Shown here in pieces: positions 42,891 through 60,176 of a stretch of DNA of 64,000 bases. Numbering within the stretch: the first letter of the stretch is position 1; each line of letters begins with the position of its first letter. A program made the translations under genes and the position numbers. The stretch covers positions 62,001 through 126,000 of the forward strand of contig NZ_QNRK01000021.1 of assembly GCF_003315135.1 (NCBI RefSeq), read 5' to 3'. The stretch is from Roseiarcus fermentans (GTDB lineage Bacteria > Pseudomonadota > Alphaproteobacteria > Rhizobiales > Beijerinckiaceae). The notes under the pieces are model-generated. The model was not told the DNA's origin, did not search any database, and worked only from the letters and a program-made list of their open reading frames with translations.

Positions 42891-42924
42891 TTGCCCTGCG
42901 CGGTCCGGTGTTCTAGTTTTGTTC
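42891..42924 (+). promoter_or_regulatory. Promoter with LexA box (locus A)
   Basis: TTGCCC at 42891-42896 and TAGTTT at 42914-42919 are 17 bases apart, a sigma-70-like arrangement. The -10 lies inside GTTC-TAGTTTT-GTTC (42910-42924), the exact GTTC-N7-GTTC form recognised by alphaproteobacterial LexA. AACAATTCC precedes the -35. A near-identical arrangement is at 57769-57802. The promoter points to the plus strand, away from glyA, into a stretch without a recognisable gene. Confidence 0.65.
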
Positions 42925-43309
42925 TCATCTGCACGGTGAGCCGGCTCCCGGGCCGATTCGTTGGCCGCTCCGGCAGGAGGTCGAGCGAAGCGCGCGCCGC
43001 GTGACCGTTTCAGGCGAGGAGGCCGTCGCCGCCGCCGGCGGCTCGAAAGGGCGAACTTGTGACAAGTCTTGCCGCCCAAGACCCCGGAATCCTTGCTTCC
43101 CTGCCGGAACTGCGCGCGCCCCGGGGCCCGACACGCGACCCGCTGCTCGTGTCCTCCCGCGCAGGCGGTGACGCGACGGCTCGGCCCGGACGAGCGGCGC
43201 ATGCGCGCCGGATCGCCGACGCGCCGCTCCCAAGGCTGCAGCGTTCGCGCGCATGACGACGCCGGCCGCGACGCTCGCCCGTAACTGCCAAGGTGGGGTC
43301 CTTACACCT

Positions 43310-43454
43310 CGTCATCGCGAGGAGCCCGAAGGGCGACGCGGCGATCCAGGAGCCGTCTGCGCTGCCGGCTGCCGAAGCGCTGGACTCCACTGGCGGCAGG
43401 CGTCGGCGTCCCGGACTCCTGGATCGCCACGTCGCTTCGCTCCTCGCGATGACG
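43310..43454. repeat. Long inverted repeat (locus A)
   Basis: The left arm (43310-43350, starting CGTCATCGCGAGGAGC and ending CGATCCAGG) is mirrored by the right arm (43418-43454, CCTGGATCGCC ... CTCCTCGCGATGACG), with a loop of about 67 bases. The two arms are slightly different variants (one contains CCGAAGGGCGACGCGG, the other GAAGCGACGTGG). The element recurs at 57864-57998 with the variants exchanged, i.e. in the opposite orientation. Confidence 0.85.
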
Positions 43455-43496
43455 GCTTTGAAGCGAGCCGCCGCCTTGGGAGATACGCTCGCCCGC

Positions 43497-43552
43497 TCGC
43501 CCGGAAAATCCGCCGCAACATCTTGAAAAGATGGATTCCGCGCCCGAGCCGC
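43497..43552. repeat. Partial copy of the 159-base repeat unit
   Basis: The sequence around GAAAATCCGCCGCAACATC and CTTGAAAAGATGGATTCCGC matches the segment GAAATCCGCCGCAACGCC / TTGAAAAGATTGAATCCGC present in each unit of the tandem repeat at 58132-58620, with a handful of differences. Only about a third of the unit is present here. Confidence 0.75.
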
Positions 43553-56901: not shown

Positions 56902-57681
56902 GTGCGCATCGCCACCTGGAACGTCAATTCCGTCCGCCAGCGGATCGGCCATCTGTGCGCCTATCTCAAGGAGGTCGCGCCCGACGCGCTCTGCCTGCAG
57001 GAGATCAAGTGCCTCGACGAGCAATTCCCGCGGCTCGAGGTCGAGGAGCTCGGCTACAACGTCGAGACCCACGGCCAGAAGGGTTTCAACGGCGTCGCCA
57101 TTCTCTCGAAGCGCCCCTTCGAGGTCGCCCGCGGACTGCCCGGCGACGACGCCGACGTGCAGTCGCGTTACGTCGAAGCGGTGATCCCGACCGAGAGGGG
57201 CGCCGTGCGGGTCGCGAGCATCTACCTGCCCAACGGCAATCCGCCCGACACGGAGAAATACCCCTACAAGCTCGCCTTCATGGATCGGCTGATCCGGCAC
57301 GCGAAAAAGTTGCTCGAATACGAGGAGCCGCTGGTGCTCGCCGGCGACTTCAACGTCATCCCCGAGGCGATCGACGCCGCCCGCCCGGAACTGTGGACCG
57401 GCGACGCGCTGTTTCTGCCGCAGACGCGGGAGAAATACCGCGAGCTGATGGCGCTCGGCTTCACCGACGCGCTGCGCGCGACCAGCGACGCCGGCGGCCT
57501 CTACACCTTCTGGGACTATCAGGCCGGGGCCTGGCAGAAGAACAACGGCATCCGCATCGACCACCTGCTGCTGTCGCCGCAGGCCGCCGACCGGCTCGTC
57601 TCGGTCGAAATCGACAAGAGCGTGCGCGCCAAGGACAAGGCGTCGGACCACACGCCGATCCGGATCGAGCTGGCGGTGTGA
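56902..57681 (+). CDS. xthA: Exodeoxyribonuclease III
   Basis: XthA is an AP endonuclease/3'-phosphodiesterase of base excision repair. The 259-residue product has MRIATWNVNSVRQRI, PDALCLQEIKCLDEQFP, LVLAGDFNVIPEAID and RIDHLLLSPQ with SDHTPI, the standard active-site motifs of the EEP superfamily. GTG at 56902 is preceded by AAGGAG. A LexA-type promoter lies 88 bases after its stop, pointing away from it. Confidence 0.95.
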   Translation: MRIATWNVNSVRQRIGHLCAYLKEVAPDALCLQEIKCLDEQFPRLEVEELGYNVETHGQKGFNGVAILSKRPFEVARGLPGDDADVQSRYVEAVIPTERGAVRVASIYLPNGNPPDTEKYPYKLAFMDRLIRHAKKLLEYEEPLVLAGDFNVIPEAIDAARPELWTGDALFLPQTREKYRELMALGFTDALRATSDAGGLYTFWDYQAGAWQKNNGIRIDHLLLSPQAADRLVSVEIDKSVRAKDKASDHTPIRIELAV

Positions 57682-57768
57682 GCAATCGTCGCCGGCGCGA
57701 GCGCGCGACGGGCGCCCTCCCTCTCCGCAATCCGGCTCGACCGTTCCGCTTTGGACGGCGACAATTGC

Positions 57769-57802
57769 TTGCCGGCCGGCGCCGCATGTTCTATATTTGT
57801 TC
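57769..57802 (+). promoter_or_regulatory. Promoter with LexA box (locus B)
   Basis: TTGCCG at 57769-57774 and TATATT at 57792-57797 are 17 bases apart. The -10 lies within GTTC-TATATTT-GTTC (57788-57802), an exact GTTC-N7-GTTC LexA-type box. ACAATTGC precedes the -35, as at locus A (42891-42924). It points into the repeats, not into a protein gene. Confidence 0.65.
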
Positions 57803-57863
57803 TCTCGACGCGAGAACGCGGCATGTTCGCCTGTCCCGAAGCGATGAGCGAAGCGACGTGGCG

Positions 57864-57998
57864 CGTCATCGCGAGGAGCGAAGCGACGTGGCGATCCAGG
57901 GGGCGGGCCGACGTCCGCCGCATGTGCGCCAAACCTGTTCGACCGCGGCGCAGGCGGCCCCTGGATCGCCGCGTCGCCTTCGGCTCCTCGCGATGACG
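57864..57998. repeat. Long inverted repeat (locus B)
   Basis: The left arm (57864-57900, CGTCATCGCGAGGAGCG ... CGATCCAGG) is mirrored by the right arm (57960-57998, CCTGGATCGCC ... CTCCTCGCGATGACG). It is the same element as 43310-43454, in opposite orientation by the order of the two arm variants. A partial third copy of the left arm's GAAGCGACGTGGCG lies just upstream at 57849-57863. Confidence 0.85.
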
Positions 57999-58037
57999 GC
58001 GGAAAGGGTCATCGGCCCTCGCCTCGGCGTTGGCGCC

Positions 58038-58087
58038 GCCCTCTCCCTCGGGGAGAGGGACAGTCGGGCGAAGCCCGGCAGGGTGAG
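58038..58087. repeat. Short dispersed hairpin repeat
   Basis: CCCTCTCCC-TCG-GGGAGAGGG (58038-58058) is followed by CGGGC-GAA-GCCCG and CAGGGTGAGGGCC, the same layout as the element at 41106-41150 between nrdR and glyA. Confidence 0.7.
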
Positions 58088-58131
58088 GGCCCGGAACGCC
58101 GACGGTCGGCGTGGCGAACCCCCGCCTGGCC

Positions 58132-58620
58132 CGGAATTTCCGAGGCGCCCGAAGAATGCCGTCATCGCCAGCCAACCGAAGCGAGCAAGGAACCGCCGTA
58201 CCGCCGTCGCGGCCCCCGCCCCGCTCGCCCCGACCGCGACAGTCGCCCGGGAAATCCGCCGCAACGCCTTGAAAAGATTGAATCCGCGCCCGGAATTTCG
58301 GAGGCGTCCGAAGAACGCCGTGATCGCCAGCCAGCCGGAGCGACCCACGGGCCGCCGCACCGTCGTCGCGGCCCCCGCCCCGCTCGCCCCGACCGCGACA
58401 ATCGCCCGGGAAATCCGCCGCAACGCCTTGAAAAGATTGAATCCGCGCCCGGAATTTCGGAGGAGCCCGAAGAACGCCGTGATCGCCGGACCGCTGAAGC
58501 GATCAGGGAGCCGCGGCGCCGTCGTCGCGGCCCCCGCCCCGCTCGCCCCGACCGCGACAGTCGCCCGGGAAATCCGCCGCAACGCTCTGATGGGATGGAA
58601 TTCGCGCCCGGGTTGCGGAG
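58132..58620. repeat. Three tandem 159-base repeat units
   Basis: The marker CGGAATTTC begins at 58132, 58291 and 58450, exactly 159 bases apart, and the corresponding point of the degenerating end is at 58609. Within each unit the blocks GCCCCCGCCCCGCTCGCCCC and GAAATCCGCCGCAACGC / CTTGAAAAGATTGAATCCGC are nearly identical, while a stretch of about 40 bases in the middle varies between units. The last unit ends with a divergent TCTGATGGGATGGAATTCGC. A partial copy of the unit is at 43497-43552. Confidence 0.92.
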
Positions 58621-58748
58621 CCCTCGGTCCCGGCCGCGCCGTGCGGGCCGCCGAGGCTGCAAGCCGGCCGGCCTCGGGCCCCGCATTGCGAACGGCCTCG
58701 CCGCGTGCTTTTGTCCCGCCGCACGATACACGAGCCCCGGGGGCCCTC

Positions 58749-60176
58749 ATGCTGACGAAACGCGACCTCCTCCGAAGCGGCGCCGCGGGCGCGCTCGCCT
58801 CCGTCCTGCCCGCCGCCGCGCTCGCCCAGACCGCGCGGCCGGGATTTTTCGGCGCGATCGACATCGCGCAAAAAGGCCTCGCCTACGGCCTGCCGATCGT
58901 CATGAACTATGCGGTCATGTATAAGTTCGTGATCGACAAGCAATCCGGTCAGTACAAGGGGCCGTTCAACACCATCGCCAACAGCCGCGACGTGTTCACC
59001 GACAAGGACACCGCCGTCGTCACGCCCAACAGCGACACGCCCTATTCGATGCTGTGGATGGACCTCAGGGCCGAGCCGATCGTCATCAGCGTGCCGGCAG
59101 TCGATCCCAAGCGCTATTATTCGGTACAGCTGATCGACAGCAGCACCTACAACTACGGTTACATCGGCTCGCGCGCCACCGGCAACGACGCCGGCGACTA
59201 CATGGTGGTCGGCCCGAACTGGCGCGGCGAGACGCCCGCCGGCGTCAAGAAGGTGTTCAAGAGCAGCTCGCAGCACTCGCTGGCGATCTTCCGCACCCAG
59301 CTGTTCAATGCCGCCGACATCGATAACGTCCACAAGGTCCAGGACGAATACGCCGCGCGCCCGCTGTCGACGTTCCTCAACCAGCCGGCCCCGCCGGCCG
59401 CGCCCGCGATCGACTTCCCCAAGATCGACGACGAGTCGGCGAAATCCAAGTTCTTCGAATACCTCGCCTTCATGATGCAGTTCATGCCGCCGATGCAGAA
59501 CGAGGACGCCATCCGCGCCGACCTCGCCAAGATCGGCGTCGAGGCGGGAAAGCCCTTCAGCCTCGACGGCCTCAAGCTCGACGACCGGCTCCAGGTCCTG
59601 GTCGGCGTGAGGATGGCGGACCGGCGGATCGACGACGTGCTCAATCTCTCCGGCAAGACCATCAACGGCTGGAAGGTCGGGCTCGCAGGCGGCGACGCGG
59701 CCTATTTCAACGGCGACTGGCTGAAGCGCGCCGCAGTCGCCAGGGGCGGCATCTACGCCAACGACGCACTCGAGGCGGCCTATCCCTTCGCGCGCGCCGA
59801 CGACCGCGGCCGGACGCTCGACGGAAAGAGCAAATACACGCTGACCTTCCCTGCCGACGGCCTGCCGCCCGTCAACGCCTTCTGGTCGGTGACGATGTAC
59901 GACGGCAAGACCCAGCTTCTCGTCAAGAACCCGATCGACCGTTATCTGATCAACGCGCCGATGCTGCCGGACCTGAAGAAGAATCCCGACGGCTCGATCA
60001 CGATCCACATCCAGAAGGACTCGCCCGGGCCGGACAAGGAGTCGAACTGGCTGCCCGCGCCGGAAGGCCCGATCTACATGGTCATGCGCCTCTACTGGCC
60101 GAAGACCAGCCCGCCCTCGATTCTGCCGCTCGACAACCCGACCTGGAAGCCGCCGGGGGTGATGCGGGTGGGGTAG
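58749..60176 (+). CDS. DUF1254/DUF1214 exported protein
   Basis: The product has 475 residues with a Tat-like or Sec signal peptide (about 1-27, TKRDLLRSGAAGALASVLP). The N-terminal DUF1254 domain contains YGLPIVMNYAVMYKF, TVNRDVFTDKD-like (here NSRDVFTDKDTAVVTPNSDT) and PYSMLWMDLRAEPIVISVP; the C-terminal DUF1214 domain contains PVNAFWSVTMYDG and a WLPAPEGPIYMVMRLYWPK ending. These domains co-occur in a large bacterial family of unknown function, often near transporters or in pathogenicity contexts. ATG at 58749 fits the signal peptide. It stands alone downstream of the repeats. Confidence 0.88.
   Translation: MLTKRDLLRSGAAGALASVLPAAALAQTARPGFFGAIDIAQKGLAYGLPIVMNYAVMYKFVIDKQSGQYKGPFNTIANSRDVFTDKDTAVVTPNSDTPYSMLWMDLRAEPIVISVPAVDPKRYYSVQLIDSSTYNYGYIGSRATGNDAGDYMVVGPNWRGETPAGVKKVFKSSSQHSLAIFRTQLFNAADIDNVHKVQDEYAARPLSTFLNQPAPPAAPAIDFPKIDDESAKSKFFEYLAFMMQFMPPMQNEDAIRADLAKIGVEAGKPFSLDGLKLDDRLQVLVGVRMADRRIDDVLNLSGKTINGWKVGLAGGDAAYFNGDWLKRAAVARGGIYANDALEAAYPFARADDRGRTLDGKSKYTLTFPADGLPPVNAFWSVTMYDGKTQLLVKNPIDRYLINAPMLPDLKKNPDGSITIHIQKDSPGPDKESNWLPAPEGPIYMVMRLYWPKTSPPSILPLDNPTWKPPGVMRVG

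What the first reader, a model, noticed from the sequence alone, without database searches (positions are those of the whole stretch)
57769..58620. A LexA-boxed promoter reading into a non-coding repeat locus (locus B)
TTGCCG, a 17-base spacer and TATATT form a good promoter whose -10 is inside an exact GTTC-N7-GTTC box. It reads into an inverted repeat and three 159-base tandem repeats, not into a protein. An SOS-induced structured RNA, or a recombination or replication-related element, would fit. I know of no described system with this layout.
Basis: partly seen in the sequence, partly recalled or inferred. Interest (0 to 1): 0.8.

Follow-up and report, generated by a model that had tools for sequence, protein, structure and literature searches.

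The report
SOS-promoter repeat cassette, decayed copy
This looks like a broken copy of a DNA-damage-controlled gene cassette found at about two dozen places in this soil bacterium's genome: it keeps a damage-type promoter and a repeated 49-base DNA site but has lost its DNA-binding-protein gene.

Summary
In detail: promoter, exact LexA box over its -10, inverted repeat and three 159-bp repeats are all there. It is not a lone locus. This genome has 23 TTG-N16-box matches (at most 1 mismatch), reversed control 0; 20 of them align as one module from -35 to start codon. Four copies read into a helix-turn-helix (HTH) gene. A 49-bp DNA site follows, on the box strand, at 27 of 43 box loci examined. 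In locus B the HTH gene is gone, REP repeats fill its place, and three sites survive as the 159-bp repeats. Relatives G009 and G010 have xth next to the DUF1254 gene without a box, so about 970 bp were inserted here. Of 298 family genomes, convincing sites occur in four, all congeners with the module (the module was sought only in the 11 congeners). The site shows no codon-phase signal and no conserved RNA fold. Best reading: a decayed, HTH-less copy of a dispersed LexA-controlled cassette. LexA binding, the protein-site link and the spreading mechanism are inferred.

The parts
56902..57681 (+). xth-type exonuclease III gene, left neighbour
   Evidence: ORF; Pfam Exo_endo_phos E 1.1e-33; counterparts in all 11 congeneric genomes; the name xth is recalled
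57710..58680 (.). approximate bounds of sequence absent between xth and the DUF1254 gene in two relatives
   Evidence: last aligned xth codon to DUF1254 start: 1071 bp here, 108 in G009, 90 in G010, where no GTTC-N7-GTTC lies between
57769..57774 (+). -35 hexamer TTGCCG
   Evidence: the CTTGCC block recurs in the module alignment
57788..57802 (+). LexA box GTTCTATATTTGTTC; -10 TATATT at 57792-57797 lies inside it
   Evidence: same box type near recA and before uvrA
57804..57804 (+). predicted transcription start (inferred, 7 nt after the -10)
   Evidence: inference from spacing; not measured
57823..57996 (+). 57-codon ORF from the ATG at the family start-codon position; no Pfam match, no HTH
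57861..58001 (.). CGTC-type REP (exact 25-bp match 57864-57888, +) facing a diverged second copy (the inverted repeat)
   Evidence: family after PMC3733652, passages read
58033..58128 (.). second interspersed repeat, up to 95% identical elsewhere in the genome
   Evidence: query about 293-389
58129..58605 (+). three 159-bp tandem repeats, each carrying one 49-bp site
58244..58292 (+). 49-bp DNA site, copy 1
58403..58451 (+). 49-bp DNA site, copy 2
58562..58610 (+). 49-bp DNA site, copy 3 (diverged)
58651..58677 (+). G+C-rich hairpin at the right end of the insertion, possible end of the transcript (no T run)
   Evidence: (I7); not called as a terminator
58749..60176 (+). DUF1254/DUF1214 gene, right neighbour
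   Evidence: Pfam DUF1254 E 1.6e-43, DUF1214 E 3.2e-37
42910..42924 (+). locus A: LexA box of a sister copy in the same window
43430..43454 (-). locus A: CGTC-type REP
43498..43546 (+). locus A: 49-bp DNA site

Best explanation
Locus B is an HTH-less, coding-dead copy of a dispersed LexA-repressed cassette. Complete cassettes consist of a promoter whose -10 lies in the LexA box, a gene for a LuxR/NarL-like HTH protein, and one or more 49-bp DNA sites, often about 160 bp apart. Here the HTH gene is missing and REP repeats occupy its place; the 159-bp repeats are the surviving site array. On DNA damage LexA would leave the box and polymerase would transcribe from about 57804 through the REP hairpins and the sites, making an RNA with no meaningful protein. 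Shown by sequence: the box and its likeness to SOS operators of this genome, the shared module, the insertion relative to two relatives, absence of the HTH domain, start codon and sites in different frames, and co-occurrence of module and site. Inferred: LexA binding, induction, that HTH was present here and lost, that the HTH protein of complete copies binds the sites, and how the cassette moved.
For: Module: 23 matches here, reversed control 0 in all 11 congeneric genomes; 29 chosen loci, 20 of them among these 23, align from -35 to start codon. Operator: recA domain at C11:135713-136501(-), box at C11:136650; UvrA domains behind the box of L003. HTH gene directly after the box in 4 copies of this genome, one cut at its C-terminal end, and in copies of G005 and G010. 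Site: 27 of 43 box loci examined, 42 of 42 hits on the box strand, 15 of the 42 being the seeds of the profile. Spacing near 160 bp in 5 of 10 loci with two or more sites (one gap of 131), 323-580 bp in the other 5. Window copy: no HTH at E <= 0.01; the ATG at 57823 lies in a different frame from the one in which the sites read NPPQ, and that frame has no start codon before them. Insertion: 1071 against 108 and 90 bp. Distribution: 32, 17, 13 and 1 sites in G000, G010, G005, G009; 288 of 298 genomes have none and 6 have one 3-mismatch hit each unlike the site.
Against: No transcript or LexA-binding data. Loci were found mostly through the box, so box retention is biased: of 24 site loci of this genome examined with resolved upstream DNA, 7 have no recognisable box, one of them with a weak partial trace, E 0.033. 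In locus A the module block is better conserved between species (40 of 46 columns) than its flanks (96 of 184 upstream, 144 of 219 downstream), which a dead copy would not predict; a block near +177 is as well conserved. Only 5 of 26 box loci examined here have any HTH match, so 'lost' rather than 'never present' is an inference, firmest for L006, which keeps a fragment. The insertion test rests on two relatives; exact ends and target duplications could not be fixed. The single pattern hit in G009 has 3 mismatches like the six I dismiss; I keep it because it follows a box and scores 3e-14 with the profile.
Confidence: 0.76

Rival explanations
1. A functional SOS-induced non-coding RNA: the transcript with REP hairpins and repeats acts as an RNA, for example by sequestering a protein.
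For: Promoter and box intact with no meaningful ORF; in sister locus A the module block is 40 of 46 identical between species and a second block near +177 is as well conserved.
Against: Fold of 57804-58680 has z -1.42 against 20 shuffles; 54 aligned sites give no consensus fold on the box strand (0.0 kcal) and only -0.1 kcal on the other, which 1 of 100 column shuffles reached; the hairpin comes from a genome-wide REP family; no Rfam family reaches its threshold, six weak matches only.
Confidence: 0.1
2. An SOS-inducible cassette whose HTH protein binds the 49-bp sites and lets the cassette spread, HTH-less copies like locus B being moved in trans.
For: Sites follow the HTH gene in several complete copies; among the 11 congeners searched for both, sites and dispersed modules occur in the same 4; empty place in two relatives; module matches vary from 0 to 23 between congeners; weak, below-cutoff likeness of the HTH protein to the IS66 accessory protein TnpA, E 1.2e-5, 25.9 bits against a cutoff of 74.
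Against: No catalytic recombinase domain found in the HTH protein; Pfam gives only matches below cutoff, two of them transposase or resolvase HTH models; two HTH copies of G005 (L120, L123) show no site within the stretch searched; ends and target duplications not defined; 7 site loci lack a box.
Confidence: 0.2
3. The insertion acts as a promoter donor and puts the DUF1254 gene under SOS control.
For: Same strand, DUF1254 start 947 bp after the box; no GTTC-N7-GTTC between the genes in G009 and G010.
Against: Long G+C-rich leader with a hairpin at 58651-58677; locus A reads toward genes on the opposite strand, so driving a neighbour is not the common feature.
Confidence: 0.07
4. The box is chance and LexA does not act here.
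For: Bare GTTC-N7-GTTC is common: 247 in the genome against 55 reversed, 4 in the window against 2.04 expected.
Against: Extended, correctly spaced box: 23 matches, control 0, 20 of them aligned with shared flanks.
Confidence: 0.03

Closest known systems
LexA (SOS) regulon genes of Alphaproteobacteria, operator GTTC-N7-GTTC (PMC9578287 and PMC12700426, passages read)
   Same: Operator sequence; same extended box near recA and before uvrA.
   Different: Here the box belongs to a module with 23 matches in one genome, most without an HTH gene behind them.
CGTC-tagged REP elements of Alphaproteobacteria (PMC3733652, passages read)
   Same: The REP at 57864-57888 starts with CGTC and recurs genome-wide, often as facing pairs.
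   Different: REPs are only the filling; the REP pattern holds no LexA box, and the 49-bp site is a separate element.
PHROG 645 phage protein family (labelled RNase E there, which looks misleading for an HTH protein)
   Same: All 15 aligned HTH proteins match it, best E 3.7e-14.
   Different: One HTH protein tested found no match in 50,697 phage records; a pattern scan of IMG/VR confirmed no relative. Here chromosomal and LexA-boxed.
SOS-controlled mobile elements such as integrons and ICEs (named in PMC9578287, passages read)
   Same: An element with a damage-type promoter whose place varies between relatives.
   Different: No integrase or conjugation gene was noticed in the insertion (two of its ORFs scanned, no Pfam match); attC sites were not searched for.

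Membership tests
Alphaproteobacterial LexA-regulated promoter | GTTC-N7-GTTC operator in the core promoter | tested here: met
   57788-57802 over the -10
Alphaproteobacterial LexA-regulated promoter | same operator at known SOS genes of this genome | tested here: met
   box about 150 bp outside the recA domain match; UvrA domains behind the box of L003
Alphaproteobacterial LexA-regulated promoter | LexA binding and damage induction | not testable with these tools
   needs footprint and RNA data; the lexA gene itself was not sought
Dispersed SOS-HTH cassette (defined here) | promoter-box-start module | tested here: met
Dispersed SOS-HTH cassette (defined here) | HTH gene after the module | tested here: not met
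   no HTH at E <= 0.01 in the window copy; so it is filed as a derivative, not a complete member
Dispersed SOS-HTH cassette (defined here) | 49-bp site downstream on the box strand | tested here: met
   three copies, spacing 158 and 160 bp by hit starts
CGTC-type REP | CGTC-headed short palindrome in many copies | tested here: met
   exact at 57864-57888; 169 matches at <= 2 mismatches, control 0
Structured non-coding RNA family | match to a described family or a conserved fold | tested here: not met
   no Rfam match at threshold; no consensus fold of the site
Transposon / IS | transposase gene and terminal inverted repeats with target duplication | tested here: inconclusive
   two ORFs of the insertion scanned, no Pfam match; ends not defined to the base

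The most novel reading that the evidence does not exclude
A DNA-damage-induced dispersing cassette of a new kind: a LexA-repressed promoter, a phage-type HTH protein and an array of the protein's own 49-bp recognition sites spread together through the chromosome when DNA is damaged, and HTH-less copies such as locus B are passive passengers that carry only promoter and sites.
Probability: 0.18. Interest if true: 0.78.

Novelty: new variant of a known kind. Interest (0 to 1): 0.56.

Why it matters
SOS regulons usually consist of mostly single-copy genes (recalled). Here one genome carries 23 matches to a single LexA-boxed module, most without an HTH gene behind them; three congeners carry 11, 6 and 2 matches, and the other seven 0 to 2, which stood before other genes or frames where I looked. 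If the cassette spreads, it links DNA damage to genome rearrangement by a route I found nowhere described. If it only decays, it is still a large set of extra LexA operators that could titrate LexA, which is a testable idea.

Tried and rejected
Protein coding under the repeats: rejected as the source of conservation. 58 site copies (E <= 1e-6, box strand only searched; from 37 of the 41 stretches examined, seeds included) have similar information at the three codon positions, 1.04, 0.95 and 1.07 bits. By my reading of the translations, most ORFs that cross a site read it in one frame (NPPQ: L010, L117, L121, L124, L129, L132, L159), but L008, L064 and L160 in another. The first group is a hint of coding and is weak evidence against my reading.

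RNA structure: no conserved fold, transcript fold unremarkable, Rfam matches all below threshold.

Single-locus SOS gene: rejected by the genome counts.

A named function for the HTH protein: not found. Pfam and NCBIfam matches are all below cutoff, PDB sequence and fold matches are mainly to LuxR/NarL-type HTH domains and weak (best E 1.8e-4; no Foldseek match at E <= 0.001); the model is modest (pLDDT 75, pTM 0.42).

Rows dropped or kept by judgement: of the 23 module matches I left C41:13408 (L072) out of the 43 loci, as it lacks the CTTGCC block; C4:68515 and C14:6541 are in the 43 but not in the 29 aligned. Four further box loci of this genome outside the pattern (L017, L018, L027, L069) are in the 43. 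G005 C63 (exact match, before another gene) and G010 C389 were left out of the 43; G005 C141 and G010 C73 were kept in and have neither HTH nor site. For the fold test 4 of 58 rows with many gaps were dropped.

The C24 HTH copy was compared with G010: flanks are shared and I found no HTH cassette between them there, but about 4 kb differ, so I do not count it as an empty site.

A first module search used a spacer two bases too long and found nothing; repeated correctly.

Papers: seven searches, listings only, showed no dispersed LexA-promoter cassette; four papers were read by passages.

Full report
What is in the window. The promoter TTGCCG-17-TATATT and the LexA box GTTCTATATTTGTTC (57788-57802) are exact, and the scan finds no other promoter-like site in 57600-58900. 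Behind it lie a REP facing a diverged second copy (57861-58001), a second interspersed repeat (58033-58128) and three 159-bp tandem repeats (58129-58605). The bare GTTC-N7-GTTC pattern is not significant in the window (4 against 2.04 expected).

The box is an SOS operator by comparison. In the window's own genome (6.79 Mb, 90 contigs) the extended box with at most one mismatch occurs 46 times against 4 for the reversed pattern. One lies about 150 bp outside the recA domain match, on its upstream side, and one stands 68 bp before a frame with UvrA domains. GTTC-N7-GTTC is the published Caulobacter operator (PMC9578287 and PMC12700426, passages read).

The locus is one of a family. TTG-N16-box with at most one mismatch gives 23 matches in this genome, 11 in G005, 6 in G010, 2 each in G009, G001 and G006, 1 each in G002, G003 and G004, and 0 in G007 and G008, which are 79% and 86% complete; reversed matches are 0 in all 11. 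The matches of G001, G002, G003, G004 and G006 stand before other genes or frames. An alignment of 29 chosen loci, 20 of them among the 23, shows a shared module from just before the -35 to a start codon about 40 bases after the box start. The taxon is inferred to be a Roseiarcus-like member of Hyphomicrobiales: contig lengths tie the congener G005 to the assembly CP_BE_BS_23 and G010 to an uncultured Roseiarcus assembly.

What follows the module. Profile search finds the HTH protein at E <= 0.01 after 5 of 26 box loci examined in this genome (one a fragment, one cut at its C-terminal end), 5 of 10 in G005 (one cut by a contig end), 1 of 5 in G010 and 0 of 2 in G009; G010 has one more, with a box but another -35 spacing. 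The protein has a LuxR/NarL-like HTH and a helical hairpin; all 15 aligned relatives match PHROG 645. Behind many of the modules, with or without HTH, lies a 49-bp DNA site: 27 of 43 box loci have it, 42 of 42 hits on the box strand, 15 of these being the profile's seeds. Ten loci have two or more; spacing is near 160 bp in five (L010, L124, L159, L160 and the window, with one gap of 131) and 323-580 bp in the other five. Information is similar over the codon positions and there is no consensus fold on the box strand, so it behaves as a DNA element. Its consensus carries CGCCCGGAA at both ends, 43 bp apart.

The window copy. No HTH remnant is found, the ATG at 57823 opens a 57-codon frame that runs into REP sequence and has no Pfam match, and the frame in which the sites read NPPQ has no start codon before them. 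From the last aligned xth codon to the DUF1254 start is 1071 bp here, 108 bp in G009 and 90 bp in G010, with no box there, so about 970 bp were inserted, roughly 57710-58680. The neighbours are an Exo_endo_phos gene and a DUF1254/DUF1214 gene.

Sister copies. Locus A (box 42910-42924) lies between opposite-strand genes: serine hydroxymethyltransferase on one side, a DivIC-like protein (27.1 bits, just below the cutoff of 28.9) and enolase on the other. It has a positional counterpart in G009: 4510 bp of downstream flank align at 85%, while no match beyond the module region was found upstream. There the module block is 40 of 46 identical, against 96 of 184 upstream and 144 of 219 downstream, and a block near +177 is as well conserved. 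This is evidence against pure decay. The only two matches to the REP pattern in the window (up to 3 mismatches; both exact) lie in loci A and B. Of the 46 exact REPs of the genome, 8 lie within 1.5 kb downstream of one of 24 box loci by my count from the lists; about 0.24 would be expected from a uniform spread, but REPs are intergenic, so the true excess is smaller.

Distribution. A search of 298 family genomes (drawn from a larger group) for the 49-bp site with up to 3 mismatches found it in G000 (32), G010 (17), G005 (13) and G009 (1, with 3 mismatches); six other genomes have one 3-mismatch match each that does not look like the site, and 288 have none; the reversed control is 0 in every row. 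Within the 11 congeners these four are also those with the dispersed module; the module was not sought in the other family genomes. Limits: of 24 site loci of this genome examined with resolved upstream DNA, 7 have no recognisable box, and 4 further ones are cut by contig ends; in G010, 4 of the 6 places with sites that I looked at show no box within 1.5 kb upstream.

Reading. The simplest account is a dispersed LexA-controlled cassette (promoter, HTH gene, sites) of which locus B is an HTH-less copy. LexA control and the absence of the gene are supported by sequence; that the gene was once here, that the sites bind the HTH protein and that the cassette moves by a process of its own are inferences. 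My literature searches (listings only, apart from the passages cited) listed no such system.

Noticed in passing
window 42910-43546: Sister copy (locus A) between opposite-strand genes, with one REP and one 49-bp site; module block conserved in G009 although I found no shared reading frame, plus a second conserved block near +177.
   Followed up: partly
L051/L065 (G000 C13:63794): A relative of the HTH protein, without a module match upstream, that has by eye a four-fold C-terminal repeat of about 50 aa.
   Followed up: no
L028, L106, L107, L108, L109, L110, L114 (G000 to G006, one each): An apparently LexA-boxed gene for an uncharacterised ~150-aa protein, similar by eye in seven of the 11 congeners.
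   Followed up: no
L048 1947-3278 (G000 C44): A 444-codon transposase-like frame (Pfam HTH_29, HTH_28, HTH_32; transposase by eye) close upstream of the cassette at C44; flanks of other copies were not surveyed for transposases.
   Followed up: partly
G000 contigs C45, C47, C48, C49, C64, C66: Modules or 49-bp sites lie within about 600 bp of contig ends, as if the repeats broke the assembly, so copy numbers may be underestimates.
   Followed up: no
L192 (G000 C2:19000-23500): Three near-identical 49-bp sites alternate with REPs without a recognisable LexA box, a local amplification of site plus REP.
   Followed up: partly
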